From: Mermis nigrescens | Lineage: Eukaryota > Nematoda > Enoplea > Mermithida > Mermithidae | Direction: 5' to 3' | NCBI GenBank assembly: GCA_036768485.1 | Contig: JAVLUZ010000143.1 | Coordinates: forward strand, 6,760,480-6,824,479 | Length of the DNA stretch: 64,000 bases | Part shown: positions 3,509 to 45,594 of the stretch, one piece after another | Position numbering within the stretch: the stretch's first letter is position 1 | How the letters are laid out: each line of letters begins with the position of its first letter | The notes under the pieces: generated by a model | Told to the model about the DNA's origin: nothing | What the model saw: the letters and a program-made list of their open reading frames with translations, nothing else | Database searches by the model: none | Made by a program: the position numbers and the translations under genes

Positions 3509-3784
3509 CGTAAGTGCCTACTAATATTCAAATTAATATGACAATCGGGTCGCCAGGCCAGAATATGTTTGTCTGTTTATACAGGACTGCTATACATACA
3601 GTAGGTAAACAGGTAGATTACTCCATAGCTGATTTGTACGACATCGATGATGAGTAGAGTGCACACAATTGCTTTTTCAAAGTTCTGCACGTAGCTGTGA
3701 ACGATACATACATTTTGCGCATTAGAAATTGATCATTTGCAATGAATTACATAAATCAGATAGTGTTTCGGAGTCGTTTGAGGG

Positions 3785-5545: not shown

Positions 5546-6164
5546 TTTCTGAAGTGCACACTGGCGCCAGTGTGGTTCCTTTCTGTTGTGGTAATTAATA
5601 CAAGATCCCTTAACCCGCAAAAATCGGGCTACAAAAGTGGTTTGAAATTTTGCTGTAGCGGCTTTATAATGTCGCATCAAATCCATATATGTACTGTAGA
5701 ATATCTCAACTATGGCGCTAGCTGAATACACTTTTGAAGGCACTTTAAATTCTTTCAAAAACTTTAAAGCTTAATGAAAGCGACATAGGTACCATCTATG
5801 GTATGGTATGTATGTACTACATATGTGCATAGTACATTTATATGCATTTAATTTTAACTTTGCGGCTTGGTCATGAAGCCGGTTCCAGCTCTTAAGAGCC
5901 AAACTCACCCAGATTTCCACAGCACAGAGTTAATAACATTCACGATAGCCAAGCGGATTCACTTTACTCGTACATTCCATTATAGCAGAGTACCAGTTGG
6001 TTATTTTTTAACCTCAGTGTTCACCCGGCAAATTAGTTCCCCCACTAGTACCCGATTTCTTCATCGCTCGGCCGGCAATCTATGAAAGAATTAACTATGT
6101 TTGTACATACCTACATACTCTGTCAAGCAATGAAAAAGTCGATTGGCACAGTAATAATGATTAC
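5546..6164. other. No feature recognised
   Basis: AT-rich sequence between the foldback arm and the retrotransposon. There are short open stretches on both strands without recognisable domains. The last four bases, TTAC, are the left target duplication of the retrotransposon block. Confidence 0.5.
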
Positions 6165-7192
6165 TGTAAACGTAGGGCGAACCTACATTCACTTGCTTAC
6201 TTATACCCGAAGCTTAAGCTCACGCGCTCGCACAAAAGGCGACTCGGGGTAAGGCCCGGCCTATCAAGATAGCCCGGCCCTCTACTGCGCGCACCTAGTG
6301 AAACTTACTTACTTAACCCCTTTTGAGATTAAGTACCTAAATAATGTTAGTTCCCCGGAAACCTAATTGAGGGCTCAAAAAGATTATTATTTAACTTTTT
6401 TGGGACCGAATTCCGGTGCTTGAAGATATTGAAGATTCCTAAGTATAGTGTAGCACAAGGACAGAATTCAACAGCACGGAAATTCAAACCGAGCCCAATC
6501 ATCGTTAATTAAATCATTAATTTTTACAATATTTTTGGACAGAAAATTATGAAGCAATGAAAAACGCGACAGCATGAAGATGCATGCTGCCGACTGTCGT
6601 GTTTCGCTAATCAGTTAAAAACAACATTATAATTGTGAGGGCACGTAGCCCGCCAATGGCATACAACTATTGCCGAGATGGCACACAAATAAAACAATAA
6701 ATGCGTAAAGGTGAAAAAAGCCTGCCCACTACGCGACGAATTACTACGAGATTTTCCTGCAGCCACACAGGGGAAAACACAGGGATACTACGTGCGGAAA
6801 AATGCGTCGCACGGAAAAGAAAACAGGCACAGCATAGAAGCTGGCGAAAAACCGGAAAGCTCAATGTAAAATGAAAAATTCTTAAAGTGGGAATGATCGT
6901 AATATCGTCAAAACTGCGCTCGCACACAGTTTTTAACAATACAAAAAAGAGGCGTATCAAATGCGGACAAAGAAACGTGGAATGGATCTACGAGAATAAC
7001 AATAGGCCTATGGGCAAAGCTTACGGTAAAGAATGTACAAACGAAATAGACACGAATATGAGACACACACATATGGAGTTTTAACACACATATGATATGA
7101 TAGCACACATACCAATTCGTACTCAAGTTGCATTAAGCTCCGATTGCCCATTTTCCTATACCGGATTTTTATTGAAAATATGTGTGGGAAAG
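6165..7192 (-). repeat. 3' LTR of outer element, truncated
   Basis: Matches the complete LTR at 25447-26688 from its TGTAAACG end to about 7192. It then jumps to sequence that in the plus copy lies near 23045, upstream of the LTR. The polypurine tract and about 500 bp of U3 are therefore deleted. Confidence 0.88.
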
Positions 7193-8245
7193 TATACAGC
7201 AAAATAAAAATATACATGGAAAATAATGAATAACGGAGATATGTAAAAAGATAGTGAGAAAAAAGTGTCCTAAGGTGGAGAGAAAAAACATTGGGAAAAA
7301 AGTGGCTGCAGGAAAAGTAACTAATAAACAAAAAATTTACGGAAAAAATGAATTAAACGAAAATATACAAACTGCTGGCGGTCGGTATGTTGTCCTGGCA
7401 CAGCGAAATCAAATGATGAGCAAATAATCAAGTGCGGCAATCTGGTTGATCGCCGAGGCAAATACGACTGAGCGGTACGACGACCATCAGTCGTGCGCAA
7501 ATAATCTGGCATAATGCGCGACGTAGAATGAGCGTGGTTGTTTCCACGCGACGGAATAGGCGTAAAATGCGGCGCGGCAATTTGCTGCTGGACAGGATAA
7601 CGATCCTGCAATTGCGTAACCGTAACGCGTGGCACAGAAACAGTCATCAGAGCTGGGCAATGCGGCGCAGCTGAACCGCAACGGCGATGATTGTCTGAAC
7701 GCGACGGACGTGGACTGCGACGGCCCGAAGCAGACGGTTGGGCCGCCGGTTGAGCAGAAGTTTGCGAAGCCAATTGTTCGGCTCTGAGTGGCGCAGCGTA
7801 ACTGACAACTACGTTTGACACGATTATAATGACGTTGACGCGACATAAGACGTTCGGTAGGTTGCGACCAAACGTTCGGCTGACGAACCGTAGAAGTAAT
7901 AGCAAAATTGGTAGTACGGCAAATATGGAATGATTGTGGCGTTTCCTCAATAGCCTGCATAGACCTACGGTCGTGTCGCTCTTGTTCCATGCGACGATGG
8001 CGTAAGGCGATTTGACCTTCAATAGATAAATCGACGGTAGATTGACGCAGTTTAGTGGGCGGCTTGTCCGTACGAAGTCGCAGACGCGTCGCGGTTGCTT
8101 AGACGGTTGCGAACTTCTTCTAATTGGCCTGGAAGAGTTATATCCAAGTAACCTTGGATTTGTTGGCAGTGCGGCATAGCGTGAAAAAACGAGTGGACAC
8201 GTGATTGGCAGGATCCGTGCGCGATCAAATTAACTGGATTCGCTT
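7193..8245 (-). pseudogene. ORF4-like 3' coding region (outer copy), unrecognised
   Basis: Open on the minus strand over most of 7487-8022 in two frames, so at least one frameshift separates its parts. The homologous ORF of the plus copy is at 22025-22753. The putative start there is an ATG, but here the same codon reads ACG near 8220. The product would be rich in Arg, Ser, Ala and Pro with low-complexity patches and no recognisable enzyme motif, signal peptide or membrane segment. It may be the C-terminal part of ORF3 split off by mutation, or a separate basic protein. Confidence 0.45.
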
Positions 8246-9879
8246 ATGCGCGGTAAATAAGTCAGTGGTTGTCTCAATAATTTCAGGAAACTCGACGGAA
8301 ACTTCTTTTGGAAACGGATTGAAAAGCTCTTTCCACGAAAATTGATCTAAGCATATGTCGAATCTGTTTGACCATGCACCAAGCAATTTGAGGTTCTCGA
8401 TACCAAAATAGGAATCTTAAAAACCGATTGTCGAGGAATTGAAGAAGTAGTGGCGCGGACATGAAAGTCGTTGATTGAAAAGATGGAATGAAACGGAAAG
8501 TTGACTTGTATTCTTCGAAAAATTCGTTCATTGAACTGAAGATATCAGCCATTTGGCGAATTGTTAACGCCAAAGGAGCATGAATGTCGGGCGCAGGTGT
8601 AAGACGATGTGGAAAAAATTCCGATGGAATTGTGTAGTTGGCTCGACGCACGATTTGAGGTGGTTCTAGCAACCTTGGATGATTGGCTACGAACTCTAAA
8701 CCAACTTCATAGACCATTGAACCGGTTGTGACGTAGAATCGAGTTAGACGAAAAGTTGAATTGTTGTAGAAAGGACGCGGATGTTGCGTGAATTTGCTGA
8801 GAAACGGGATTGGCAAGGCCGGTCGAATTTCGATTGACATATTTTGCGCGGATTGTTGACCGCTTAGAACAACTCAAGGCAATGATTGTTGCTCGTTGGC
8901 CTGATATACATTGTTGAAACTAGTCAAAATACGTTCGATATATTTGTTTGCATTTGCAATTAGAGTTTCGATCAGCGGATTAGCGAATTCTTGTCCCAAA
9001 AGGTTGACAAGATGAGCTCGGAAATCTTCTGTGTACATCCGATAGGCATGTTCAGCTTCCTGGCTCACCAAGAAATCTCGTTTTTGGGCAAATTCTTGCG
9101 CTTGTTGCTTGTTAAGCAACAGTGGCGCACGTTCCTTTGGTTCTTCGTGATATTTGTCCACAACCTCTAAATCTTTGAAAAATCTTTCGTGCACAGCCTG
9201 AGCAAATTCATCTTCCAATTTTCGAATATGATCGCTTTTTTCTTTCGTTTTGCCTTCCGGAACGATCAGATATTTGTAACTGCAAGTCGGCTGATCTTGC
9301 ATCATCATTTCTTCTTCAGCTGTGATTGCTGGCTGAGATGTTTGCGGAGGCTCCGCTACATCTTCACTTGGACTTCCGGAAGCTTCGTCGACAACTTCAA
9401 AAACTTCTTCATCATAGTTGAGGGCTTCTTCCTCATTTTTGTAGACTTTATCAGGATATTTCGGCTCTGTATCTGGCCGTGAGATGGAAGTTGGCGCACT
9501 TGTGCGCTGATCATTGTCGGTAGACGGAGGTGCAGAGACGAAAGGAGTTTGAGACAAAGATGCAGTCGATTCTTGTGACGCTTCTGGTGCTAACGTGAAA
9601 GCTGGTTGCACCATTTCGATGTCTGATTTGTTATCATCATCGTCATATTCCTCTGCGCTCTCATCGAAGCTAGAGTTAGAATGTCTACGATCACGTTTTC
9701 CCTTTTTGAATTCTTCAGCCTTTTCTTTCTTTTTCTGTTCCGCAATATCTCTGCGTTTGATTCTCTCGGCGAGCTCTGCTTTAGATTTCGCAGGCATTGA
9801 GCCGGCTTGAGCCAAAGGCATATCAAATTTTCGATCCTTTTCGACTTTCTGATTTCCGGACATTTCATCTCCGGCGAAT
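8246..9879 (-). pseudogene. ORF3 linker and C-terminal region (outer copy)
   Basis: This continues the exonuclease-bearing ORF on the minus strand. It first encodes a highly charged Lys/Glu/Asp-rich linker, with acidic runs near 9620-9660, followed by about 300 residues of more ordinary composition. An in-frame TGA near 8874 interrupts it; the plus copy has AGA there, so ORF3 originally ran through. The C-terminal segment contains a conserved stretch rich in Phe, Pro and Tyr, which I do not recognise. No transmembrane helix or fusion-peptide pattern is evident, so it does not look like an envelope glycoprotein despite its env-like position. Confidence 0.6.
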
Positions 9880-10945
9880 TGCTCTCTATTGGTCGGAGCC
9901 GTTAGAGCAATATATGAGCGATCAACTGCATGACGCACTATCAAAAGATACAGATCCAGAGCACCGAGTGGATCGGTGATTAGATATCGAACCATATGAT
10001 CTGGCAATGGAGCTCAATTCCAAGCTTGACCTACTGCCGTTCTGGCTGACCGACAAATTTGTAGATTGAACATATACTGTAAAAGCGTTTGGAGACAATG
10101 ATTTGCCAGGCGTAGTTGCTACAGTTCTGGTGAAATTTGTTGGCGAGCGGAAGAGTATCAATTATTTGAGCCTCAAACACGTTGCGTTCGAATAACTCGT
10201 GATGCCTCTGACGCTGACGGCGACTTTGCTGATAGTGTTCCCAAGCAAAAAGATGTGTCGCATACACATGAAAATATGCAATGCGGTCATTATCTGATCC
10301 GTGGCAAGCAAAGGCGACATCTGATAGTCGAATGGTGAGCAACTCATGTAGGCCAAAAGGCGGAAGTGGGAACTGTGCGACGTCCCACACAAAAACTTGA
10401 CCGCGAACTGTCGCGATTTGGATGAAACGGACAAATGGACCGTTTGAATCGTGATGCGTGGCCCTTATGGCCCGATACTGATCATCCCATTGGGAATATG
10501 GCAGAAAAACGCGATCATTAACAAACTCTGAGTCAAAGCCAAAAAGAAAACGACCATTTACGGCGTTCATCGGCGCAAGAATAGCGACAATGGCCGCATA
10601 TGACTGTGCGGGCGAATCTACGAAGACTATACGGATATTGCTGGCTGGGACATATGGCGCAGTCAGTGGCGCTCTGCCAAAATGCTCAAAATACCAATGA
10701 CGTTGAGCCATGATGCGACGATAACGCTGAGGTTCAGCACGCGGGCTTACAGGCGCTATATCGGCAATGAAGCCGGCACGCCCAATATGTGGAGACTCTT
10801 GACCCGTAGGTCCTGAGCGTAGCTGCAAGCCTGCAGCTGCCGCATGCAAGGCTATGAGGAATTCTGTGACATTGGACGGCGTATGGCCGTTGCAATTGAA
10901 CTCTGGACGGTTGTTATCCAAGTTTTCTGACGGTTTGTCGGACAT
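9880..10945 (-). pseudogene. ORF3 N-terminus: RNase D-like DEDDy exonuclease (outer copy)
   Basis: ORF3 starts with ATG at 10945, 94 nt inside the integrase ORF and in another frame. After about 100 N-terminal residues it shows the layout of a DEDD 3'-5' exonuclease (the DNA_pol_A_exo1/RNase D family). Motif I is GFDSEF (Asp and Glu at residues 138 and 140; Asp codon 10532-10534). Next comes a beta-strand block FVRFIQIATVRGQVFVWDV, typical of the family. Motif II is ACHGSDNDRIAYF (Asp near residue 220), followed by IIDT. Motif III is YLITD, preceded by a Trp...PLP stretch as in RNase D (Asp codon 9972-9974). All four acidic residues are present. A frameshift near 10030-10140 separates motif III from the rest, so this copy is broken. 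Family knowledge predicts metal-dependent 3' exonuclease activity; its role in the element is unknown. Confidence 0.8.
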
Positions 10946-12277
10946 AGTTGAGTAAAATAGTGTTCTGAAAAAGGGTAAACGTTATTTAGGGGAACTGCAT
11001 GATTAGATTTAGACATAACGAGTAGATGGACGGGAACGCATTCCTTTTTATGGCGTTCACTAGCCGGTAATTCTGAGAAATCTATGACTATCCCAGGGCA
11101 GACGGGACGACGTGGGACCTGAACTAGTACGATATCGCCTGGAATATATGCGCGTTTCTCCGAAATTAAATCGGAAAATGGCAATTTTGGCGATTGCAAT
11201 AACCTATTTTGATGAACTAAGTGAGTCACGAGCGGATTGTGAATATAGACAATCCGAGCTGTTTCGGAAGTTGGCAGTTCAGTGATGCGATATGGACCCA
11301 CTTGCTTAGGAGCAAGTTTGCCTTGGTTCGACGGAATAACTGCTTTGTTATTCAGATAAACAATATCGTTAACCGAAAAAGTTGTTTCGGAAACATTTTT
11401 ATCATATTGTCGCTTCTGATGCATACGCGCTTTCGCTAAATTAGTGGCTGCAGCCTCGTGTAAGTCACGTAGGGAGTGAACTAGGCTGGCTAAGTACGCT
11501 TCAACTTGGTTAGACGATTCAGGGTCAAGGGTTAAATCATTCAAGATTTGAATATCTAACGGAAAAGATGGCTCTCGACCATAAAGTAAGACAAATGGCG
11601 ATAAATTTGTCGAGGCTTGAGGCGTTGCTCGATAAGCAAACAATGCAAATGGGAGATACTGTTCCCAATCATATTGATCACGAGCAGTTAGCTTCGATAA
11701 ACAGTCAATCAATGTTTGATTATACCTCTCAACCAAACCATCACATTGGGGATGGTACGGTGTTGTAAAATTTTCTGGATATGCAATATTTTGCATATTT
11801 CAGAAACTAACGTTGATGTAAAATTCGATCCTTGATCTGTCAAAAAACGTCTAGGCACTCCGTGTCTGGGTATAATTTCACGAAGCAAAAGATTTGCGAT
11901 CGTAGTAGCTTTTATGTCCGAAACAGGATATGCTTCTACATATTTCGTGAAATAATCCATGAAAACTACAACTTGATCATTTCCAGAGATAGATTTTGGC
12001 ATGTGAAGACAATCACATGCGATGAGATCAAAAGGAGCACTAACTTCAATCGGTTTTAGGGGTACCAATGCTGGAATTGACGAAATCTTACGTTGCAGAC
12101 ATGTATGGCAATTTTCGCACCATGCAATGACATCGTTTTCCATTCTTGGCCACCAATATCTCATTTGGATATTGGGCAAAATTTTTCGGGCTGAGAAATG
12201 AGCACCAAGAATTGAGTCATGAAATTCTGATAGGATAAAACGACGTAGAGATTTAGGTATGACGAGTTGATAGATGA
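10852..12277 (-). pseudogene. Integrase region of pol (outer copy), 5' truncated
   Basis: Minus-strand fragments at 11709-12277 and 10852-11796 encode a gypsy-type integrase. Visible are the CENCHTCLQRK zinc-finger cysteines, the catalytic-core Asp in ACDCLHMPK, the second Asp in LTDQGSNF and, after a frameshift, the Glu in GLVERYN, i.e. a D,D35E core. A C-terminal VGPYRI block resembles the GPY/F module of Ty3/gypsy integrases. The fragment ends abruptly at about 12277, where sequence switches to the LTR of the plus copy. ORF3 begins inside its last 94 nt. Confidence 0.9.
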
Positions 12278-12706
12278 CTTTAATAATTTTTTATTTACAT
12301 TGAGCTTTTCGGTTTTTCGCCAGCTTCTATGCTGTGCCTGTTTTCTTTTCCGTGCGACGTATTTTTTGCACATAGTATCCCTGTGTTTTTCCCCTGTGTG
12401 GCTGCAGGGAAATCTCGTCGTATCTCGTCACATAGTGGGCAGGCTTTTTCGCCCTTACGCATTTATTGTTTTATTTGTGTGCCCTCACGGCAATAGTTGT
12501 ATGCCGTTGGCGGGCTACGTGCCCTCGCAATTATAGTGTTGTTTTTAACCAATTAGCGTAACATGACAGTCGGCAGCATACATCTTCATGCTGTCGCGTT
12601 TTTCATTGCTTCATAATTTTCTGTCCAAAAGTATTGTAAAAATTAATTATTTCATTAACAATGATTTGGACTCGGTTCGGTTCCAATGTAAACGCTTGCG
12701 TTTACA
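12278..12706 (+). repeat. 5' LTR remnant of inner element
   Basis: Matches the 3' LTR from about 24050 to 24460, then ends in a palindrome (12682-12711) instead of the last 300 bp of the LTR. The first 500 bp are absent as well. The final TTTACA matches the end of the other LTRs. Confidence 0.85.
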
Positions 12707-12965: not shown

Positions 12966-15300
12966 ATGACCAAAACTGGGAGAAAAACCCCAGATAAGTC
13001 GCCTAAGCAGGCTAATACAAATGTGAATAATACAAATATGAATGACACAAATGTGAATCGGATAACCAAAAATGGCAATTCAAATAATCTCTTGAATGCG
13101 ATGTTCAGCGCATATGCAAGATTTGGAAAATCGGCTTGAACATATAGCCGTTGAACATGTGCATGCACAGTTGCAAAATGCAAATTCTGCAAACCCTGAT
13201 TTGCAGCCTGTTGAGCCGCAACCGGTGCCCAACGTCACTGCAAACGCGGACCAGCAGCATTTAGCTCGCTTTGCAAATGCTGACTCGGATTCGTGCGTGC
13301 AGCTTGCAACGTCAACGCCAGTCCGTCGTTCGTCCATTCCAGTGCTTCCTAATCAGCAAATCGCCTCACGTTTATTGCGTCCTACTGTTTCTGTAAGCGC
13401 TGAGCAGCAACATTTAGCTCGTTTTGCAAATGTTGAACTGTCTCCGCGAGTACAGATCGTTTCGCCAGCCGTTCAGCCGGCCACGAACCAAGCTAATCCC
13501 GTAAATGCTGAACTTCCGCCACTTCATGCGATGCATATTCCACAGAATCAAATTTTCGTGCCAAATACAGGTGCATCAATCCCGCTGGATCAGAACCCAC
13601 CTCGAAATCAACAGAATCGAAAAGTTCATTATCCGGATCAAGCTACTGACTCTCCGCCGGAAAGTCCAAGGCGTCATGGATCTTCTTCAAGACGTTCATG
13701 GCGTCGTCACCGTGACACATCGTCTGATAGCTCAGAGAATACAGGTATTTGCTACCTAGCTGATTCTATGAATTGAGGTCCATTTTTGCAACAAATTCAG
13801 TACACAATAGCCAATAAGAAGTTTTTTCAGGGTGAAAAAGCAGATATTCGTGGATTTTTTCATGAACTTGAGCGGATTAGCAAATGGCTATAGAATTGAT
13901 GAAAGATCGTGTCTAGATTTGTTGCCATCATTTTTCGATACCTATACGACTAGATTGTTTTGCTCCATACCCAACGACGTTCGCGGAATCTTATGAACTC
14001 ACAAAACAAGCATTAATTGCAGAGTTTCGGCCTATCGACTCAGATACATTGTTTGATAGATTTCTTGAGCAAAAACAGCACCCATCAGAGTCTGTGAACG
14101 CTTATTTTTTGGCGTTACGCAAAGATCTCATTCGAGCTCAACCAGAAATTCAAGTTGACTTCGATAGCTTTTGAGAAAATGCTCCGTCATCAGCTCAGAA
14201 AAGGGATGAACCCAGATATCGTGAGAAAAGCTTACAAAAGAGCGCATGAAGCACCGCTTCAAGATTTTCTTCATGCTGCGCGGTGTATAGAGTTTGCGAA
14301 CCTACAGTATGCTTCAGCTAAGCAGCCTACGCCGTATTTACCAGCAACTGCCGCTGCAGTATCCAGTAGCGTGTTGCCAAAAAATAATTTTCGGCGTTCA
14401 ACGTATAGTCAAAATGAGACCCCCACCCCGTCAATCTGCGTCTTTTCGTCAATCGCGTCCAGAGACATCTAATGCTTTAGCGCAACATTATTGCGTGTAT
14501 TGCAAACACATGGGCCACACCAGAGATGAATGTTTTCGGCGTCAGCAAAACAACAACCAAAATTACCGCAACAGCGAAGCTCACAATCCTAGTGAGTATG
14601 CGAATCGATACTGTAGCCAACCTAGGCCAATGTTTCAAAACAATCCATCATCGTGGCGATCGAACTACCGTACTCTGTATAATTCTCGTGTGTTTTCAAA
14701 ACTCACAGTATCCGTCTACGTCTCAAAATTATGACTCCCGTCAAGATTTTTGACGTCCGAGCAATGATTTTTGGCAAAATTACGGTAATCGCCAGAACTA
14801 CCGTAATCCTTACAGTAACACGCGATACTATGACAATGAAAGAAATATGTTTGCAAATAATCGTTTTGCAGAACATTCTCAGAATTATCGCCAGCCGAAT
14901 AACGCGTATTGACAATTTCCGCAGCAATCTGTGCGTTCTAACCACACATGGGCGTGGGGTTTGGGGGCATGCACCCCCCAGAAGTCGAAATACCCCCCCC
15001 AGAAAAAATTTTTTTTGCTTTTTTTAGCAATTTTTTGATGCCATTGAATAGAGCTTGATGAGAAACGTCGAAAATGGTGTTTTTTCGCCATACCACCATT
15101 TTTAAGGCCATTTTTGACCTTTAAAAATTTTTTCACCCCCAGAAATTTTTCACCCCCCAGAATTTTGGTGCTGCCCACCTATGGTTCTAGCCCCCGGCAG
15201 TTACGTATTCGGTATCATCCACACCCACCATTACGTTTCCCCCACCGCAACCGACCCAACCGTCATCTAATAACGAAAACTTTGTAACTTCGTCTGTCTC
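12966..15300 (+). pseudogene. gag-like region with CCHC zinc knuckle, broken
   Basis: A start Met at 12966 opens a Lys/Asn-rich N-terminus (MTKTGRKTPDKSPKQ) that recurs at the start of the outer copy's gag (25189, minus strand), which supports this start. The frame changes near 13096 and again between 13776 and 14155. In the frame read at 14294-14734 a zinc knuckle CVYCKHMGHTRDEC (C-x2-C-x4-H-x4-C, codons 14492-14533) identifies a nucleocapsid. Gln/Asn/Arg-rich low-complexity sequence follows. A family A MITE interrupts the region at 14943-15183. Gag would package element RNA; this copy cannot make an intact protein. Confidence 0.8.
14943..15183 (+). mobile_element. Family A MITE inside gag
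   Basis: Ends are CACACATGGGCG and CCCACCTATG. Flanking 8-mers are GTTCTAAC and GTTCTAGC (one mismatch). The insertion lies in the Gln/Asn-rich tail of gag, so family A was active after the inner retroelement landed. Confidence 0.9.
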
Positions 15301-15313
15301 GACTTCCGAAAAT

Positions 15314-15820
15314 TTGGAACAGCTTTTTGCATCTCAAGCTTTTCTCGAGGAATATCATTGTTTACAGAAACGTTTAGCAGTCTACAGAAAGCTAAACTCG
15401 CAAGTCAAAACTCAGGATGCAGCTAATAAACCCGTTGTTAGCCATGCATCTACGAATTTGCCTACAATTTTAGCAGAAATCAACGGAATAAAGCTCCCTG
15501 CGTTAATTGACACAGGATCGCAAGTCACAATGATGACCACAAGCGCTTTTCTGCGTTTAGGTTTCAAATTGCCACCAAAGCAAGCAGCGCATGTTGTTCA
15601 TGGAATTGGAAAAATGACAGCAACCGTGCGTTTCACCTATATCATGCATATCACAGTCGCAGAACAAACCACTCCGGCTGTTGTTTTAGTCATCGATGAC
15701 TTACTGGAAGATTTGCTTTTAGGCTTCGATTTTTGCAAACAAGCTTTACTTTTTGTCAACACAGTTGAAGTATTGTGCTTTTGCCAATGGTTTTCGTGTC
15801 GAATTACTATCCGCAAATGA
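15314..15820 (+). pseudogene. Retroelement aspartic protease
   Basis: The open frame contains the retropepsin active site ALIDTGSQV (Asp codon 15509-15511). About 65 residues later comes the LLLGFDF block, equivalent to the I-L-G-x-D-F motif of gypsy proteases. The family cleaves Gag and Gag-Pol. The frame shifts by one relative to RT between about 15753 and 15820; this looks like an indel because sensible sequence continues directly in the next frame. A programmed shift is possible but no slippery site is obvious. Confidence 0.85.
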
Positions 15821-17518
15821 CAAAAAGCATTTACGCGTCAACCCTGATGCGCAAACAGCGTGTCCGGTTTGTGCTCGCGTAACTGTTACCGAATCTATTG
15901 TCATTCAACCGCGTCACGAAGTTGTGACGCCCGGATATGTTTGTTATGGTCAATTCAACGACAAAATTGCTCTTTTTGAACCTGATAATGACTTCATGTT
16001 AAGCAAATCACTGTTTGTCGCACCAGCTATCATCGACACATCAGTTCCTGTTTTCCCACTTCGCGTCTGTAACACGTCTAAATCACCTATCACTATAGAT
16101 ATTGGAGAATTCATAGGTTCTTTAACGACTGAAGCTGAAATTGTGTCTCATGTCGCCCTATCAGACGATAGAGCACTCGAACTTTTTGCTTTGATCAACA
16201 AAGCCTTAAATGGTTCGGCAATAAATGCTCATCAGCAACAGCAGGTTCGTGATCTGTGTCAGCATTACTCTTCAATTTTTGCCTTAAAAGGAGAACCCTT
16301 AGGCCGAACGCCACTCCTAAAGCATCATATCGATACAGGTGATAGTCCGCCTATCACAGGAAAGACATATCGCGTCGAACATTCGCGTCAAAAAGCGATG
16401 CAAGCAGTTATCAACAAAATGTTAGCTGATAAAGTGATTCGTCCAACTACAAGCCCATGGGCTAGTCCGTTATTCCTAATCGGTAAAAAGGATGGTTCTT
16501 TGCGTCCAGTTGTAGACTATCGTCGCCTAAATGAAGTGACTAAGACCCAAGTGTATCCGTTACCTCAAATCGAAGATTATTTCGATGCTCTCGGATTGGC
16601 AGCGTATTTTTCTACACTAGATCTCAAATCAGGTTATTGGCAAATCCCGTTAGATAAAGAATCACGGGAGAAAACAGCTTTCATTTGCCCTGTCGGTCAC
16701 TATGAATTCAATGTGTTACCTTTTGGTCTCAAAAATGCGCCAGCAGATATTCAGCGCTTAATGGAATTAGTTCTAGCAGGACTAAACTGGAACAAATGCC
16801 TAGTTTACATCGACAATATCATAGTTTTTCTCGAACTTTCCCAGAACATCTTCAAGACCTAGAGAAAGTTTTTAAGGCTCTAAATGACACAGATTTGCGC
16901 ATTAAGCTGGACAAATGCCATTTTGCCCACAACAAAGTGCAATTTTTAAGGCATAGAATTAGTTCTTTTGGGATCGCACCAGACCCAACGAAAGTTGCAG
17001 ATGTACGAAGTTTTCCGACTCCGAAAAATGTGAAAGGCGTACAAAAATTCCTTGGCCTTGTCCATTGGTTCAAAAAGTTTGTAAAAGCTCTCGCAAAAGT
17101 AGCTAAGCCACTTTTCAACTTATTGCAAAAAGATATACCTTTTGTTTGGACTGAAAAGCATCAAGAAGCTTTCGAAAAAATCAAGGATGCTTTCACTTCT
17201 CCGCCAATCTTGCAATTGCCAAAGTTTGACGACAAACATCAGTTCATATTGACAACTGATGCCAGCAACTATGCTTTAGGTGCAATTCTTACCCAAAAGC
17301 ATCTGCCGTCGGGTAATTGCTTCATACTCAGCTATGCAAGCCGCGTCTTGAATTCCGCTGAGTGCAATTATGCCACGTCAGAGAAAGAAGCTCTAGCCGT
17401 TGTGTGGGCGATTAAATACTATTGTCACTATCTCTACGGTACAGAGTTCGTGGTTGAAACAGACCACCAAGCTTTAACATGGCTAGTAAACGTCAAAGAC
17501 CCGTCTAGTTGTCTTTGA
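15753..17518 (+). pseudogene. Reverse transcriptase and RNase H, RT active site mutated
   Basis: The frame at 15753-16862 encodes gypsy-type RT. Visible blocks include GKKDGSLRPVVDYRRLN, STLDLKSGYWQIPL (first catalytic Asp), FGLKNAPADIQRLM and LVYIDNIIVF. In the last of these the usual Y-x-D-D is Y-I-D-N (Asn codon 16815-16817), so one of the two metal-binding Asp residues is lost. A frameshift near 16830 leads to 16796-17518, with the thumb/connection and RNase H. There TTDASNYALGAILTQ, TSEKEALAVVWA and VETDHQALTWL supply the Asp, Glu and Asp. A stop follows at 17516. Confidence 0.93.
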
Positions 17519-17555: not shown

Positions 17556-19396
17556 TTGTGTATGTCCCCGGCGCATATAATTGTGCCGCCGATTTACTTT
17601 CGCGTCACCCCAAAGTATGATGAAAATGAGCGAAAGTATAAAGCTGAAAGAAAAGCAGTTGTGAACCTAGCTAATCTAGAATCCGAAAAGTCAGAGTCGG
17701 AAGAGGATGATAATCCGCCCGACATACCTACCACGTCAAAAGCGAATAGAAATGTACCACCGGTATATTATGAAAGAAATATGCTGACAGATGCAGAAAA
17801 AGCAGAAATGCTAACGCCAGCTAAACTGTTGGCAGAACAACGACTTGACCCTGAAATCGTCAAACTCCGCGACTCTCTCGATGATCTTTCCGAGAAGAAG
17901 TATAGCGATGAATTTTTTGTCAGTCAAGATCTACTTTTTTGATGTTTTCAACCCAAACGTAGCCCACAAGTCATCTATCAACTCGTCATACCTAAATCTC
18001 TATGTCGTTTTATCCTATCAGAATTTCATGACTCAATTTTTGGTGCTCATTTCTCAGCCCGAAAAATTTTGCCCAATATCCAAATGAGATATTGGTGGCC
18101 AAGAATGGAAAACGATGTCATGGCATGGTGTAAAAATTGCCATACATGTCTGCAATGTAAGATTTCGTCTATTCCAGCATTGGTACCCCTAAAACCGATT
18201 GAAGTTAGTGCTCCTTTTGATCTCATTGCATGTGATTGTCTTCACATGCCAAAATCTATCTCTGGAAATGATCAAGTTGTAGTTTTCATGGATTATTTCA
18301 CGAAATATGTAGAAGCATTTCCTGTTTCGGACATAAAAGCTACTACGATTGCAAATCTTTTGCTTCGTGAAATCATACCTAGACACGGAGTGCCTAGACG
18401 TTTTTTGACAGATCAAGGATCCAATTTTACATCAACGTTAGTCTCTGAAATATGCAAAATTTTGCATATCCAGAAAATTTTTACAACACTGTACCATCCC
18501 CAATGTGATGGTTTGGTTGAGCGTTATAATCGAATGTTGATTGACTGTTTATCGAAGCTAAGTGCTCGTGATCAATATGATTGGGAACAGTATCTCCCAT
18601 TTGCGTTGTTTGCTTATCGAGCAACGCCTCAGGCCTCGACGACATTTATCGCCATTTGTCTTACTTTATGGTCGAGAGCCATCTTTTCCATTAGATATTC
18701 AAATCTTGAATGATTTAACCCTTGATCCCGAATCATCTAACCAAGTTGAAGCGTATTTAGCCAGCCTAGTTCACTCCTACGTGACTTACACGAGGCTGCA
18801 GCCACTAATTTAGCGAAAGCGCGTATGCATCAGAAGTGACAATATGATAAAAATGTTTCCGAAACAACTTTTTCGTTAACGATATTGTTTATCTGAATAA
18901 CAAAGCAGTTATTCCTTCGAACCAAGGCAAGCTTGCTCCTAAGCAAGTAGGTCCGTATCGTATCACCAAATTGCCAACTTCCGAAACAGCTCGGATTGTC
19001 TATATTCACAATCCGCTCGTGACTCACTTAGTTCATCAAAATAGGTTATTGCAATCACCAAAATTGCCGTTTTCCGATTTAATTTCTGAGAAACGCGCAT
19101 ATATTCCAGGCAATATCATACAAGTTCAGGTCCCACGTTGTCCCGTTTGTCCTGGGATAGTCATAGATTTCTCAGAATTACCGGCTAGTGAACGCCATAA
19201 AAAGGAATGTGTTCCCATCCGCTTACTCGTTATGTCTAAGTCCAATCATGTGGTTCCCCTAAATAACGTCTACCCTTTTTCAGAACCCTATTTTACTCAA
19301 CTATGTCCAACAAACCGTCAGAAAACTTGGATAACAACCGTCCAGAGTTCAATAGCAATGGCCATACGCCGTCCAATGTCACAGAATTCCTCATAG
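17556..19396 (+). pseudogene. Integrase, frameshifted
   Basis: Fragments at 17556-17942, 18069-18713 and 18971-19396 encode an N-terminal zinc-binding region (an HDSIFGAH block and CKNCHTCLQCK). They continue with a catalytic core with Asp in ACDCLHMPK, Asp in LTDQGSNF and Glu in GLVERYN, and a C-terminal VGPYRI GPY/F-like module. Family function is insertion of element cDNA. At least three frameshifts break it. The last 94 nt overlap ORF3, exactly as in the outer copy. Confidence 0.9.
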
Positions 19397-20330
19397 CCTT
19401 GCATGCGGCAGCTGCACACTTGCAGCTACGCTTAGGACCTACGGGTCAAGAGTCTCCATATGTTGGGCGTGCCGGCTTCATTGCCGATATAGTGCCTGTA
19501 AGCCCGCGTGCTGAACCTCAGTGTTATCGTCGCATCATGGCTCAACGTCATTGGTATTTTGAGCATTTTGGCAGAGCGCCACTGACTGCGCCATATGTCC
19601 CAGCCAGCAATATCCGTATAGTCTTCGTAGATTCGCCTGCACAGTCATATGCGGCCATTGTCGCTATTCTTGCACCAATGAACGCCTTAAATGGTCGTTT
19701 CCTTTTTGGCTTCAACTCAGAGTTTGTTAATGATCGCGTTTTCTTGCCATACTCCCAATGGGATGATCAATATCGGGCCATAAGGGCCACACATCATGAC
19801 TCAAACGGTCCATTTGTCCGTTTCATTCAAATTGTGACAGTTCGCGGTCAAGTTTTTGTGTGGGGCGTCACACAGTTCCCACTTCCGCCTTTTGGCCTAC
19901 ATGAATTGCTCACCATTTGACTATCAGATGTCGCCTTTGCTTGCCACTGATCAGATAATGACCGCATTGCGTATTTTCATGTGTATGTGACATGTCTTTT
20001 TGCTTGGGAACACTATCAGCAAAGTCGCCGTCAGCGTCAGAGGCATCACGAGTTATTCGAACACAATGTGTTCGAGGCTCAAATAATTGATACTCTTCCG
20101 CTCGCCAATAATTTCACGAGAACTGTGGCAACCACCTCGGGAAATTATTGTCTCCAAATGCTTTTACAGTATATGTTCAATCTACAAATTCGTCGGTCAG
20201 ACAGAACGGCAGTAGGTCAAGCTTGGAATCGAGCTCCGTTGCCAGATCATATGGTTCGATATCTAATCACCAATTCACTCGGTGCTCTGGATCTGTGTCT
20301 TTTGATAGTGCATCATGCAGTAGATTGCTC
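19303..20330 (+). pseudogene. ORF3 N-terminus: exonuclease-like domain, catalytic residues lost (inner copy)
   Basis: The ATG at 19303 opens the counterpart of the outer copy's exonuclease. Motif I reads GFNSEF (Asn codon 19714-19716) instead of GFDSEF. Motif III reads YLITN (Asn codon 20272-20274) instead of YLITD. Between them, a stop near 19918 and another near 19948 break the frame, which resumes at 19981. The IIDT block after motif II and the Trp...PLP stretch before motif III remain. With two of four metal ligands changed and stops inside, this copy is dead; its value is that it independently shows the same domain in the same place. Confidence 0.8.
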
Positions 20331-22016
20331 ATATATCGCTCTATCAGCTCCAACCAATGAAGAGCAATTCGCTGGAGATGAAATGTCCGGAAATCAGAAA
20401 GTCGAAAAGGATCAAAAGTTTGATATGCCTTTGGCTCAAGCCGGCTCAATGCCTGCAAAATCTAAAGCAGAGCTCGCCGAGAAAATCAAATGCAGAGATA
20501 TTGCAGAACAGAAAAAGAAAGAAAAGGCTGAAGAATTCAAAAAGGGAAAACGTGATCGTAGACATTCTAACTCTAGCTTCGATGAGAGCGCAGAGGAATA
20601 TGACAATGATAATAATGAATCAGACATCAAAATGGTGCAACCAGCTTTCACGTTAGCACCAGAAGCGTCGCAAGAATTGACAGCATCTCCGTCTCAAGCT
20701 CCTTTCGTCTCTGCACCTCCATCTACCGACGATGATCAGCGCACAAGTGCGCCAACTTCCGTCTCACGGCCAGATACAGAGCCGAAATATCCTGATAAAG
20801 TCTACAAAAATGAGGAAGAAGCCCTCGACTATGATGAAGAAGTTTTTGAAGTCGTCGACAAAGCTTCTGGAAGTCCAAGTGAAGATGTAGCGGAGCCTCC
20901 GCAAACATCTCAGCCAGCAATCACGGCTGAAGAAGAAATGATGATGCAAGATCAGCCAACTTGCAGTTACAAATATCAGATTGTTCCGGAAGGCTAAACG
21001 AAAGAAAAAGCGATCATATTTGAAAATTGGAAGACAAAGTTGCTCAAGCCGTCCACGAAAGAGTTTTCAAAGATTTAGAGGTTGTGAACAAATATCACAA
21101 AGAACCAAAGGAACGTGCGCCACTGTCGCTTAATAAGCAACAAGCGCAAGAATTTGCCCAAAAACGAGATTTCTTGGTGAGCCAGGAAGCTGAACATGCC
21201 TATCGGATGTACACAGAAGATTTTCGAGCTCATCTTATCAATCTTTTAGGACAAGAATTCGCTAATCCGCTGATCAAAACTCTAATTGTGAATGCAAACG
21301 AATATATCAAACGTATTTCGACTAGTTTCAACAATGTATATCAGGCCAATGAGCAACAATCATTGCCTAGAGTTGTCTTTAGCGGTCAACAATCCGCGCA
21401 AAATATGTCAATCGAAATTCGACCGGCCTTGCCAATCCCATTTCTCAGTGAATTCACGCAACATCCGCGTCCTTTCTACAATGATTCGACTTTTCGTCTA
21501 ACTCAATTCTATGTCACGACCGGTTCAATGGTCTATGAAGTTGGCTTAGAGTTCGTAGCCAATCATCCAAGGTTGCTAGAACCACCTCAAATCGTGCGTC
21601 GAGCCAACTACACAATTCCATCGGAATTTTTTCCGCATTGTCTTACGCCTGCGCCCAACATTCATGCTCCTTTGGCGTTAACAATTCGCCAAATGGCTGA
21701 TATCTTCAGTTCAATGAACGAATTTTTCGAAGAATACAAGTCGACTTTTCGTTTCATTCCATCTTTTCAATCAACGACTTTCATGTCAGCGCCACTACTT
21801 CTTCAATTTCTCGACAATCGGTTTTTAAGATTCCTATTTTGGTATCGAGAACCTCAAATTGCTTGGCGCATGGTCGAACAGATCCGACGTATGCTTAGAT
21901 CAATTTTTGTGGAAAGAGCTTTCAATCCGTTTCCAAAGAAGTTTTTGTCGAGTTTCCTGAAATTATTGAGACAACCACTGACTTATTTACCATGCATAAG
22001 CGAATCCAGTTAATTT
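20331..22016 (+). pseudogene. ORF3 charged linker and C-terminal region (inner copy)
   Basis: Continues ORF3 through a Lys/Glu-rich, likely disordered or coiled linker and an acidic Ser/Glu/Asp stretch. A TAA at 20995-20997 is a point change (the outer copy has a Lys codon, AAA). The frame resumes at 21027-22013 with the unrecognised C-terminal segment, which here reads through the site where the outer copy has TGA. Together the copies imply one ORF of roughly 900 codons from 19303. No transmembrane helices, glycoprotein-like cysteine pattern or known domain is visible in this part. Confidence 0.6.
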
Positions 22017-22024
22017 GATCGCGC

Positions 22025-22753
22025 ATGGATCCACCAATCACGTGTCCACTCATTTTTCCACGCTATGCCGCACGACAACAAATCCAAGGTTACTTGGATA
22101 TAACTCTTCCAGGCCAATTAGAAGAAGTTCGCAACCGCCTAAGCAACCGCGACGCGTCTGCGACTTGTACGGACAAGCCGCCCACTAAATTGCGTCAATC
22201 TACCGTCGATTTATCTATTGAAGGTCAAATCGCCTTACGCCGTCGTCGCATGGAACAAGAGCGACGCGACCGTAGGTCTACACAGGCTATTGAGGAAACG
22301 CCACAATCATTCCATATTTGCCATACTACCGATTTCGCTATTACCTCTACGGTTCGTCAGCCGAACGTTTCGTCTCAACCTACCGAACGTCTTACGTCGC
22401 GTCAATGTCATTATAATTGTGTCGAACGTAGTCGTGAATTACGCCGCGCCACTAGAGCCAAACGATCAGCTTTGCAAGCTTCTGCTCAACCGGCGGCCCA
22501 ACCGTCTGCTTCGGGCCATCGCAGTCCACGTCCGTCGCGTTTAGACAATCATCGCCGTCGCGATTCTGCTGCTGCCGCATTGCCCAGCTCTGATGACTGT
22601 TTCTGTGCCACGCGTTACGGTTACACAATTGCAGGATCGTTATCCTGTCCAGCAGCAAATCGCCGCGCCGCATTTTACGCCTATTCCGTCACGTGGAAAC
22701 AACCGCGCTCATTCTACGTCGCGCATTACGCCAGATTATTTGCGCACGACTGA
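22025..22753 (+). pseudogene. ORF4-like basic protein, unrecognised
   Basis: A 242-codon open frame follows ORF3 after 9 nt. It is Arg-rich, with RRRRMEQERRDRRS near residues 72-87, then Ser/Pro/Ala-rich low-complexity sequence. No domain is recognised. It could be the detached C-terminus of ORF3, because the frame just upstream (to about 22018) also reads sensibly into this region. The homologous stretch of the outer copy is at 7487-8220. Confidence 0.4.
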
Positions 22754-23532
22754 CGGTTGTCGTACCGCTCAGTCGTATTTGCCTCGCGATCAACCGGATT
22801 GCCGCACTTGATTATTTGCTCATCATTTGATTTCGCTGTGCCAGGACGATGTACCGACTGCCAGCAGTTTGTATATTTTCGTTTAATTCGTTTTTTCCGT
22901 AAATTTTTTGTTTACTAGTTAATTTTCCTGCAGCCACTTTTCCCAAAATTTTTTCTCTCCACCTTAGGACCTTTTTTCTCACTATCTTTTTACATATCTC
23001 CGTTATTCATTATTTTCCATGTATATTTTTTATTTCGCTGTATACTTTTCTGATTTTTCCAAAAAACATATTTGTTATTTCACTGTATTTGTCTGTCTTT
23101 GATTCATTTATTGTCCTTGTCCATATGTGTTCTCAATTTGTCCATAATTTAAGCCTTTTGTACTCAATACTAATTAAGCCGAGTGACCTGCCCTCCTATC
23201 ATAAATTATTTTTTCAATCAAATTTCTCCGGGTCCCGGGCAAACAGTCTATTCCGTACGTTGCACAAAACCACGTTGTCAACGTGTCGTCGACACACCGT
23301 TTTTCGATCTCCCGTTGCTCAATTGTTTGACGTAGCCGTACGTCATCCCGTACATTTTCATGCATACGTTTCGTGCATAAAAATGTGTCAGCATCCTGCT
23401 TCGATCTGCTGACACAAATCGATAATCGCCCGACTCCACACCATGGCCGTCTTTGCGCAAAAAGTTTGAGCACAAACGTTTTTGCGCTTAAAAATTTGCA
23501 CTGCTTGCAAATTTTTCTCGATATCCGGGGAG
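22754..23532 (+). other. 3' untranslated region and polypurine tract of inner element
   Basis: AT-rich sequence without coding signal lies between ORF4 and the 3' LTR. It ends in CCGGGGAG directly before the LTR start TGTAGAG, a plausible polypurine tract priming plus-strand synthesis. Most of this region is deleted in the outer copy. Confidence 0.65.
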
Positions 23533-24782
23533 TGTAGAGATGGCTCTACACCCCATTTTTGTTGCGTTGGTTCAACGCGAAATTCCATTTGTTTTGTGCT
23601 ATGTTGTACTTACATGCCAATGACTGTTTGCCCCAGATGCTCAAATTCGTGCTTGATTTCCATTTGCACGTACGCGACCACTCAGCGTAATGCTTTAGTG
23701 TGTCGCCCGGGACCACCTTCCCTCTTAAAATTATCATATCTTCATTTCCTTTCCCACACATATTTTCAATAAAAATCCGGGATAGGAAAATGGGCACTCG
23801 GGCTTAATACAACTTGAGTACGAATTGGTATGTGTGCTATCATATCATACGTGTGTTAAAACTCCATATGTATGTGTCTCATATTTGTGTCTATTTTGTT
23901 TGTACATTCTTTACCGTAAGCTTTGCCCATAGGCCTATTGTTATTCTCGTAGATCCATTCCGCGTTTCTTTGTCCGCGTTTGATAAGCCTCTTTTTTGTA
24001 TCGTTTAAAACTGTGTGCGAGCACAGTTTTGACGATATTACGATCATTCCTCCACTTTAAGAATTTTTCATTTTACATTGAGCTTCCCGGTTTTTCGCCA
24101 GCTTCTATGCTGTGCCTGTTTCCTTTTCCGTGCGACGTATTTTTCTGCATGTAGTATCCCTGTGTTGTTCCCCTGTGTGGCTGCAGGGAAATCTCGTCGT
24201 ATCTCGTCGCGTAGTGGGCAGGCTCTTTCTCGCCCTTACGCATTTATTGTTTTATTTGTGTGCCTTCACGGCAATAGTTGTATGCCGTTGGCGGGCTACG
24301 TGCCCTCACAATTATAGTGTTGTTTTTAACCAATTAGGGTAACACGACAGTCGGCAGCATGCATCTTCATGCTGTCGCGTTTTTCATTGCTTCATAATTT
24401 TCTGTCCAAAAGTATTGTAAAAATTAATTATTTAATGAACGATGCTTGGGCTCGGTTCGAATTTCCGTGCTGTTGAATTCTGTCCTTGTGCTACACTATA
24501 CTTAGGAACCTTCAATATTTTCAAGCACAGGAATTTGGTCCCAAAACAAGTTAAATAATAATCTTTTTGAGCCCTCAATTAGGTTTCCGGGGAACTTACA
24601 TTATTTAGGTACTTAATCTCAAAAGGGGTTAAGTAAGTAAGTTTCACTAGGTGCGTGCAGTAGAGGGCCGGGCTATCTTGATAGGCCGGGCCTTACCTCC
24701 GAGTCACCTTTTGTGCGAGCGCGTGAGCTTTAGCTAGGGTTAAGTAAGCACGTGAGTGTAGAGCTGCGGCCCTACACTTACA
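23533..24782 (+). repeat. Complete 3' LTR of inner element (about 1250 bp)
   Basis: Begins TGTAGAGATGGCTCTACA, itself a small inverted repeat, and ends TTACA. It matches 25447-26688 in reverse complement over its length. Beyond its end, sequence switches at once to inverted gag of the outer copy. Confidence 0.9.
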
Positions 24783-25446
24783 CATGCACATGTTCAACAG
24801 CTATACGTTCAAGCCGATTTTCCAAATCTTGCATATGCGCAGAACATTGCATTCAAGAGATTATTTGAATTGCCATTTTCGGTTATCCAATTCACATTTG
24901 TGTCGGAAACCGATCTTTGTGGATTTGGAATTGTCGTTTTGTTCAAAATCTGATGAAGAGTGATATTGTCGTCATTTGCAACTCAATTATCTATTGGAGA
25001 GTCAACACTGTTGTCCTGAGTTTGGACACCTAGCGTTTGATTTGTATTCACAACGCAGTCTGCACTTGCACAATTTTGTGCACTGGCGCTATTATCTGAA
25101 TCTGAGTCATTTGACACATTTCTAGATGATTTCGGAGTATTAGCCTGCTTAGGCGACTTATCTGGGGTTTTTCTCCCCGTTTTGGTCATTTTTCCTGCTA
25201 GTTTTTGCCTGGCATGACAGACAAATTGAGATTATGATCAGGACAAAAAATTTATGTCACAACCCCAATCTCGACCAAGAAAAATATGCACACGAACACA
25301 ATAGAGTCAAAAATGCACACAAACAGTAAAATGTTAAGAATACACACAAACACAATATGATTACATAAAGTGGAAAAATTTTTGAAAATTTTTAGGCAGA
25401 AAATGAAACGATGTTAGCTCGGCCGGTCGTCGTGAATGACCTCCAA
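24783..25446 (-). pseudogene. gag start and leader of the outer element
   Basis: Read on the minus strand, this holds the leader with the primer-binding site beside the LTR (25427-25445), then gag from ATG at 25189. Its first residues, MTKTGRKTPDKSPKQANT, match the inner copy's gag. Downstream the two gags differ by an indel-rich Ser/Asp/Asn stretch. The fragment stops at the inner LTR after about 400 bp of coding sequence. Confidence 0.85.
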
Positions 25447-26688: not shown

Positions 26689-26692
26689 TTAC

Positions 26693-44655: not shown

Positions 44656-44713
<58 letters not shown>

Positions 44714-45514: not shown

Positions 45515-45594
<80 letters not shown>

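What the first reader, a model, noticed from the sequence alone, without database searches (positions are those of the whole stretch)
8246..10945. Gypsy-type retrotransposon encoding an RNase D-like DEDDy exonuclease in the env position
ORF3 starts inside the end of pol and carries, in order, GFDSEF, an IQIATVRGQVFVWDV strand block, a motif II Asp (ACHGSDND), IIDT, a Trp...PLP stretch and YLITD. This is the full DEDDy 3'-5' exonuclease signature. An exonuclease domain here, fused to a long charged linker and an unknown C-terminal region, is not something I know from Ty3/gypsy elements. Roles in cDNA end trimming, tRNA primer removal or counter-defence against small RNAs are speculation. Both copies in the window have it in the same place, so it belongs to the family and is not a chance capture.
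Basis: partly seen in the sequence, partly recalled or inferred. Interest (0 to 1): 0.88.

Follow-up and report, generated by a model that had tools for sequence, protein, structure and literature searches.

The report
Nematode retrotransposon carrying its own exonuclease
A family of jumping genes in what is probably a mermithid nematode carries, where related retroviruses keep their envelope gene, a conserved nuclease related to the human Werner-syndrome exonuclease, a known but rare arrangement, and several relatives also have a chromatin-reading domain fused to the enzyme that inserts them into the genome.

Summary
The window holds two broken, nested LTR retroelements (copy 1 has a 4-bp target duplication). 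Both have an ORF3 behind integrase with DEDDy motifs, but copy 1 has them in two frames and copy 2 has lost two catalytic residues. Relatives in the same genome (probably Mermis nigrescens) have the whole domain in open frames of 1181-1304 aa. Single sequences of the window family do not reach PF01612, but sister elements do, profiles of those sisters find the window family (E 1e-10 to 7e-12), and a combined profile finds WRN exonuclease (2e-12) and Egalitarian. Within families dN/dS is 0.14-0.16. No clear transmembrane segment: not an envelope. A splice-acceptor-like site precedes ORF3 in five of five overlapping families. Prior art: bdelloid Juno/Vesta LTR elements carry a DEDDy ORF3 (Viruses 2017, 9:78), so this is a variant of a known kind in a new phylum. 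Unexpected: integrases of sister elements end in a PWWP domain closest to LEDGF/HDGF; the window family keeps a decayed version. My literature searches, partly seen as top rows only, listed no such fusion. Against a simple catalytic role: 14 of 26 family-C copies have the motif II Asp changed to Asn.

The parts
25447..26688 (-). copy 1: 5' LTR, TGTAGAG...TTTACA, about 1.24 kb
   Evidence: self-comparison; ends read
6165..7192 (-). copy 1: 3' LTR, truncated at its 5' side; ends TTTACA
26689..26692 (-). copy 1: target-site duplication GTAA (upstream)
6161..6164 (-). copy 1: target-site duplication GTAA (downstream)
25429..25446 (-). copy 1: primer-binding-site-like TTGGAGGTCATTCACGAC directly after the LTR; end approximate, tRNA not identified
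   Evidence: same in copy 2
10852..12290 (-). copy 1: integrase end of pol (H2C2 zinc finger, rve core), in two frames
10921..11139 (-). copy 1: PWWP-like tail of integrase, decayed (PVCP in place of P-x-W-P), below Pfam's cut-off
   Evidence: E 2.3e-4; intact-frame relative (E 5.2e-4)
10965..10972 (-). splice-acceptor-like TTTTTCAG just before the ORF3 ATG
7453..10945 (-). copy 1: ORF3, broken; extent by alignment to the intact 1181-aa relative
10523..10540 (-). exonuclease motif I, GFDSEF
10271..10309 (-). exonuclease motif II, ACHGSDNDRIAYF
9972..10013 (-). exonuclease motif III, APLPDHMVRYLITD (other frame)
8132..9062 (-). ORF3 conserved C-terminal region, fold unknown; coordinates approximate, by linear mapping of the alignment
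   Evidence: (37-40% identity between distant families, 64% B-C)
12277..12706 (+). copy 2: 5' LTR, 5'-truncated; start approximate
23533..24782 (+). copy 2: 3' LTR
15191..15820 (+). copy 2: aspartic protease
   Evidence: E 4e-12
15723..17518 (+). copy 2: reverse transcriptase and RNase H
17943..19396 (+). copy 2: integrase end of pol
19267..22808 (+). copy 2: ORF3, broken; motif I D to N, motif III D to N

Best explanation
This is ORF3 of a lineage of Ty3/gypsy-type LTR retrotransposons in a nematode, probably Mermis nigrescens. SHOWN by sequence: ORF3 follows integrase in the env position; its N-terminal part holds a DEDDy 3'-5' exonuclease domain of the WRN/Egalitarian/mut-7 group; the rest is a linker that varies between families and a conserved C-terminal region; there is no clear transmembrane segment; the protein is under purifying selection and the domain recurs in deeply diverged sister families. 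INFERRED: in the overlapping families ORF3 is made from a spliced subgenomic RNA (acceptor just before its ATG), as env is in retroviruses. INFERRED, most likely mechanism: the protein is a soluble, mostly catalytic exonuclease that works with the element's own RNA or cDNA in the particle or nucleus, trimming 3' ends before or during reverse transcription or integration, with the C-terminal region as docking part. Copies with a changed catalytic residue would then rely on protein supplied by other copies.
For: PF01612 on sister ORF3s (picked from the PF01612 genome search): 3.6e-10, 1.3e-8, 1.3e-6, 6e-7, 1.2e-6, five of five over the cut-off. Profile of the P sisters, built without the window family, finds window copy 1 at 1.2e-10 and family-A loci L002-L011 at 7e-12 to 7e-11; profile of families A-D finds a sister at 1e-14. 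Combined profile against the PDB: 17 hits at E up to 1, of which 15 bear the name of an exonuclease of this kind, Egalitarian or DNA polymerase I; best WRN 2.3e-12, Egalitarian 9e-11, mut-7 homolog 6e-6; the other two are an uncharacterised protein and a BLUF photoreceptor. Asp-Glu-Asp-Tyr-Asp complete in 36 of 53 loci. dN/dS of the domain 0.16 (family A, 15 pairs), 0.14 (family C, 10 pairs), 0.07 B against C with dS near saturation. No 19-residue window above 1.65 in Kyte-Doolittle in seven ORF3s. Acceptor-like TTTNCAG|A 4-19 nt before the ATG in five of five overlapping families, in the best 0.8-2.2% of background windows; its three codons keep identical third bases in A-D, as only 4 of 516 three-codon windows do.
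Against: 14 of 26 family-C copies have motif II Asp changed to Asn, mixed over the tree with Asp copies and with the same dN/dS (0.13 against 0.12); family D has His for the motif III Tyr. Within families the linker is about as constrained as the exonuclease (dN/dS 0.16-0.21), so low dN/dS is not special to the nuclease; family B copies differ too little to judge (no synonymous and 4 non-synonymous differences in 3 pairs). No activity, transcript or protein was seen. PF01612 gives nothing for the ORF3s of families A, C, D and L091 or the L090 piece. The fold prediction failed (mean pLDDT 34). The splice acceptor rests on a hand-set matrix, no donor was sought, and the 11 P and Q loci show none in the best 5% of background. 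The 2017 paper found no significant departure from neutrality and no clear copy-number effect for its ORFs.
Confidence: 0.5

Rival explanations
1. Counter-defence: the exonuclease trims or destroys host small RNAs or double-stranded RNA that would silence the element, acting in trans.
For: Relatives include a mut-7 homolog; mut-7 and Nibbler act in small-RNA pathways (for mut-7, abstract start for Nibbler). Arenavirus ExoN takes part in suppression of innate immune signalling (abstract start of PMC7968707). A separate ORF without clear membrane segment suits a trans-acting factor.
Against: No small-RNA data; mut-7 itself promotes silencing; nothing in the sequence points to a substrate.
Confidence: 0.2
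2. Non-catalytic RNA-binding adaptor: the fold is used to bind and carry element RNA, as in EXD1 or Maelstrom (inactive DEDD derivatives, passage) or Egalitarian (recalled), and catalytic residues are partly relict.
For: Egalitarian is the second protein in the PDB ranking; motif II Asn in 14 of 26 family-C copies under unchanged purifying selection; Tyr to His in family D.
Against: Motif I Asp-Glu and the motif III Asp are kept in families A-D where read, apart from L011 and window copy 2; D-E-D-Y-D is complete in 12 of 14 Q loci, the other two being incomplete and one of them with Lys for Glu.
Confidence: 0.2
3. Proofreading: the exonuclease edits reverse transcription errors or removes blocked cDNA ends.
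For: Exonuclease encoded beside RT; nidovirus ExoN is a precedent for a viral proofreader (abstract start of PMC7968707).
Against: ORF3 is a separate protein, not fused to RT; no measure of fidelity; copies with a motif II variant have spread.
Confidence: 0.05
4. Chance capture: a host gene fragment or passenger without function.
For: The host genome does hold what look like cellular DEDDy genes (contig C728).
Against: Same place in five deeply diverged groups (A-D, L091, P, L090, Q); 34 of 109 PWWP rows with a listed exonuclease hit within 2.5 kb downstream on the same strand against 0 upstream and 0 on the other strand; dN/dS 0.12-0.16.
Confidence: 0.02

Closest known systems
Juno and Vesta LTR retrotransposons of bdelloid rotifers (Rodriguez, Kenefick, Arkhipova 2017, PMC5408684; abstract, outline and passages seen)
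   Same: LTR element with gag, pol and an ORF3 in the env position that codes for an RNase D-like DEDDy exonuclease without TM or coiled-coil domains.
   Different: Phylum Rotifera; Juno and Vesta have dUTPase between protease and RT, where copy 2 here shows none; their DEDD is changed to DEED, here DEDD is mostly kept; acquired at least twice there; the word PWWP does not occur in the paper's text and it reports no chromodomain. Their sequences were not at hand for comparison.
Terminons/Athena Penelope-like elements (PMC6431247, passages seen)
   Same: Retroelements with an accessory DEDDy exonuclease.
   Different: Not LTR elements; telomeric, up to 40 kb.
Dada DNA transposons (PMC3706591, passages seen)
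   Same: Those of Laccaria and Ectocarpus carry a DEDDy DnaQ-like exonuclease, proposed to process cleaved 3' ends.
   Different: DNA transposons; domain lies inside the transposase.
WRN exonuclease domain and Egalitarian (PDB 2fbt, 9uju)
   Same: Nearest solved relatives of the domain by profile.
   Different: Cellular proteins. The Q-type L029 alone scores 60.2 and 49.2 bits against two P-type places (C59:2530210, C44:2689258) but 18.8 bits against WRN.
LEDGF/p75 (PC4 and SFRS1-interacting protein) PWWP domain
   Same: The integrase tail of one P-type element matches it at 8e-10; LEDGF tethers lentiviral integrase to chromatin (recalled; HIV paper in the listing).
   Different: Here the domain is fused to the integrase itself; decayed in the window family.

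Membership tests
DEDDy 3'-5' exonucleases (PF01612) | Motif I Asp-x-Glu | tested here: met
   Invariant in alignment A1; Asp invariant and Glu nearly so in A2
DEDDy 3'-5' exonucleases (PF01612) | Motif II Asp | tested here: met
   Invariant in A2, but Asn in 14 of 26 family-C copies
DEDDy 3'-5' exonucleases (PF01612) | Motif III Tyr-x3-Asp | tested here: met
   His-x3-Asp in family D
DEDDy 3'-5' exonucleases (PF01612) | Significant profile match | tested here: met
   Sister ORF3s over the cut-off; window family only indirectly, alone 0.042 for family B and nothing for A, C and D
DEDDy 3'-5' exonucleases (PF01612) | RNase H-like fold | tested here: inconclusive
   Single-sequence model, pLDDT 34
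DEDDy 3'-5' exonucleases (PF01612) | 3'-5' nuclease activity | not testable with these tools
   Needs a bench assay
Ty3/gypsy LTR retrotransposons | LTRs TG...CA, short target duplication | tested here: met
Ty3/gypsy LTR retrotransposons | Order protease, RT, RNase H, integrase | tested here: met
   Copy 2
Ty3/gypsy LTR retrotransposons | RT phylogeny | not tested
   No reference RT set used; the integrase of one sister element matches the Ty3 Gag-Pol chain best in the PDB (E 1.6e-13)
Env-bearing retroelements (errantivirus type) | Envelope glycoprotein with transmembrane segment | tested here: not met
   No clear hydrophobic segment in seven ORF3s; the highest window, 1.65, lies in the exonuclease core of family D; no env family in Pfam. 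Signal peptides were not tested
Juno/Vesta clade | dUTPase between protease and RT | tested here: not met
   scan the copy 2 frames 15191-15820 and 15723-16862 and find none; one broken copy only
Juno/Vesta clade | Sequence kinship of ORF3 | not testable with these tools
   Bdelloid sequences not held
PWWP-domain proteins (integrase tail) | Profile match over cut-off | tested here: inconclusive
   Met in P sisters and L091; families A and D below cut-off (5.2e-4, 1.2e-3), B and C no hit, two Q integrases no hit

The most novel reading that the evidence does not exclude
A nematode lineage of LTR retroelements has built two host-type tools into itself: an integrase with its own PWWP chromatin reader, which would steer insertions to H3K36-methylated gene bodies without a LEDGF-like host tether, and a self-encoded 3'-5' exonuclease that edits the ends or errors of its own RNA or cDNA.
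Probability: 0.2. Interest if true: 0.85.

Novelty: new variant of a known kind. Interest (0 to 1): 0.6.

Why it matters
It shows that a nuclease in place of env is not a rotifer oddity: the same kind of domain sits in the same place in diverse elements of another phylum, kept by selection across deep divergence. That makes the open question of what such a nuclease does for a retroelement testable, with natural catalytic variants (Asp/Asn in family C) as built-in controls. The integrase-PWWP fusion, if it binds methylated H3K36, would be a natural counterpart of the LEDGF tether used by lentiviruses.

Tried and rejected
Direct Pfam and PDB searches with the broken ORF3 of the window gave nothing, and the profile of the four close families alone found no exonuclease in the PDB; only intermediate families made the link. 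Three searches of 5.8 billion proteins found no relative, nor did two scans of viral contigs, so no relative outside this genome was seen. An envelope was considered and rejected for lack of a clear hydrophobic segment. A programmed -1 frameshift at CCCTTTT was considered; family C reads ACCTTTT there, while the acceptor-like motif fits all five families, so splicing is preferred. In the L029- and L052-type loci read, ORF3 does not overlap pol. The fold model is uninformative and was not searched against any library. Trees of integrase and exonuclease agree on the three main groups, but with ten tips this says little, and the order of A and D is unsupported in both.

Weak points: the candidate lists are capped, so counts are lower bounds; near-identical copies may be haplotypes; B and C are close (integrase 90% identical), so the five acceptor families are not five independent cases. 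In some searches frames were cut at their first stop; six of 27 copies have one internal stop, skipped as a codon; the family-C count drops L072, which is family B. In four P and Q loci the first ATG lies 20 or more codons into the frame, so the place searched may be wrong. The splice matrix was set by hand from the recalled nematode consensus. LEDGF cage residues (Met15, Trp21, Phe44) are recalled, not from a call. In one search I gave all 90 rows but only 16 of the 94 rows; one search repeats it with all of both and gives the same counts. The 131 rows were not used there.
Full report
WHAT IS THERE. The minus strand of 8-11 kb carries the end of a pol gene and an overlapping ORF3. Copy 2, plus strand, has ORF3 in the same place; the two are 94.5% identical over 5.1 kb, and copy 2 reads GFNSEF at motif I and YLITN at motif III. 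Protease, RT, RNase H and integrase precede ORF3 in copy 2. Copy 1 has LTRs TGTAGAG...TTTACA flanked on both outer sides by GTAA, LTR identity 96.4%, and TTGGAGGTC directly after the 5' LTR. Copy 2 lies inside copy 1 on the other strand, and its 5' LTR is truncated where it meets copy 1's integrase.

HOST. The genome has 523,963,438 bases in 860 contigs and TTAGGC arrays, the telomere repeat of nematodes by recall. Mermis nigrescens has a published assembly of 524.2 Mb in 867 scaffolds with 84% repeats (PMC10989877, passages; taxonomy). I take the host to be this species; it was not proven by a marker gene (the rRNA search did not complete).

THE FAMILY. One search listed 131 matches. Close relatives (family A) include six rows with a 1181-aa frame; families B, C and D are 39-44% identical to the query. 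I fetched 18 stretches. Between distant families of A-D the exonuclease region is 42-46% identical and the linker 15-23%; for B and C the figures are 71% and 46%. A PF01612 search of the same genome gave 90 rows, 46 over the cut-off. Three of these on contig C728 look like exons of a cellular gene. Thirty loci were fetched, and 27 of them score over 100 bits with profiles of two further ORF3 groups, here called P and Q, which were built from nine of them; I read the frames of 13, and where an integrase frame was held ORF3 follows it. The profile of A-D finds P and Q at E down to 1e-14; the profile of P finds the window copy at 1.2e-10. The 13-sequence alignment keeps the acids (but for one Glu, in L036) and, but for family D, the tyrosine, and its profile finds WRN exonuclease at 2.3e-12, Egalitarian at 9e-11, a mut-7 homolog, NrnC and EXD2. 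So the domain is a DEDDy exonuclease, nearer to WRN and Egalitarian than to RNase D (E 0.81), and window family membership rests on a chain of profiles rather than on one direct hit.

SELECTION AND CATALYTIC RESIDUES. dN/dS in the domain is 0.16 in family A (15 pairs), 0.14 in family C (10 pairs), with the linker at 0.21 and 0.16 and the C-terminal region at 0.27 and 0.12; family B copies are too alike to judge. Between B and C it is 0.07 at saturating dS. The D-E-D-Y-D set is complete in 36 of 53 loci. Of the other 17, five are incomplete in the frame but unchanged where read, three are incomplete and changed, and nine are complete with one change: four family-C and one family-A locus, both family-D loci and two P loci. 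Against a simple catalytic story, 14 of 26 family-C copies carry Asn at motif II (GAT to AAT), scattered over the tree among Asp copies, with dN/dS 0.13 in the Asn group and 0.12 in the Asp group. Family D has His at the motif III Tyr.

EXPRESSION. Seven ORF3s have no clear hydrophobic segment. In families A-D and the A-like L091 a TTTNCAG|A stands 4-19 nt before the first ATG of ORF3, and the third bases of its three codons are the same in A-D, as in 4 of 516 windows of three codons. I read this as a 3' splice site for an env-like subgenomic RNA; a spliced-leader site is equally possible. In the other 11 loci the best site is within the background (tails 0.06 to 0.92).

THE INTEGRASE TAIL. 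In P-type elements the integrase frame ends in a PWWP domain (E 9e-14, 1.5e-11, 2.6e-11; four of four longer or further frames), for one of them nearest in the PDB to LEDGF (7.8e-10) and HDGF. By alignment to LEDGF the Trp and the Phe of the methyl-lysine cage (positions recalled) are kept in the three P frames compared; in A-D the Trp is Cys. L091, a sister of A-D by its ORF3 (5e-58), keeps P-H-W-P and matches PWWP at 1.3e-10, so the tail of the window family, at 5.2e-4 in A and 1.2e-3 in D and not found in B and C, is best read as a decayed PWWP. Two Q-type integrases show none. PF00855 gave 109 rows in this genome, all over the cut-off (150 of 460 candidates scored), 54 in frames of 600 aa or more, many with identical scores, which suggests recent spread or haplotypes; some rows may be host genes. 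Of the 109, 34 have a listed exonuclease hit within 2.5 kb downstream on the same strand, 0 upstream and 0 on the other strand (all rows). Of the 32 long-frame rows without such a hit I fetched one each of two types (L090, L091); both have the domain downstream by profile, L090 in two overlapping frames, though PF01612 itself finds neither. So 34 is an undercount.

WHAT IS KNOWN. Bdelloid Juno and Vesta elements have a DEDDy ORF3, as do Athena elements, and the authors name 3'-end processing of element RNA, a part in silencing, and, as formally possible, an env-like role (PMC5408684, abstract and passages). Dada DNA transposons carry the domain too (PMC3706591, passages). Other papers repeat the rotifer case (PMC5718144, PMC6431247, PMC6338049, passages). 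Searches for DEDDy with retrotransposon (10 of 10 papers listed), DnaQ-like with LTR retrotransposon (3 of 3), and nematode, Ty3 gypsy, exonuclease domain and retrotransposon (10 of 10) listed no nematode case by title and abstract start. Searches for PWWP with retrotransposon, integrase, Ty3 or LTR listed 3 of 3, 20 of 22, 15 of 320 and 12 of 184 papers (two opened for passages) and none by title or abstract start reports an integrase-PWWP fusion in a retroelement. Most subscription papers are not held, so this is not proof of absence.

MECHANISM. Most likely the protein is a soluble exonuclease acting on 3' ends of the element's own RNA or cDNA; counter-defence and a non-catalytic RNA adaptor are the main rivals, and the Asp/Asn variation in family C keeps the adaptor alive. 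None of these has been shown.

Noticed in passing
L036, L042, L052, L091, L092 (host genome); window 10921-11139: Integrase with a C-terminal PWWP domain nearest to LEDGF/HDGF in sister elements; decayed in the window family.
   Followed up: partly
L022-L026, L070-L089 (family C): Motif II Asp to Asn (GAT to AAT) in 14 of 26 copies, scattered over the tree, other catalytic positions unchanged where read.
   Followed up: partly
L090:188-1790: An exonuclease-type ORF3 split between two overlapping frames; may be a sequencing error or a real shift. The type has eleven rows with a 1756-aa pol frame.
   Followed up: no
L031:1393-1875: A 161-aa frame matching PF01612 (3e-6) of unclear kind, host gene or another element.
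   Followed up: no
window 60-5500: Repeats 87-90% alike in inverted orientation (708-1430 with 4519-3783, 60-717 with 5399-4746), apparently unrelated to the retroelement.
   Followed up: no
window 44600-45600: Long TA-rich simple repeats that read as IYIYIY in frames on both strands.
   Followed up: no
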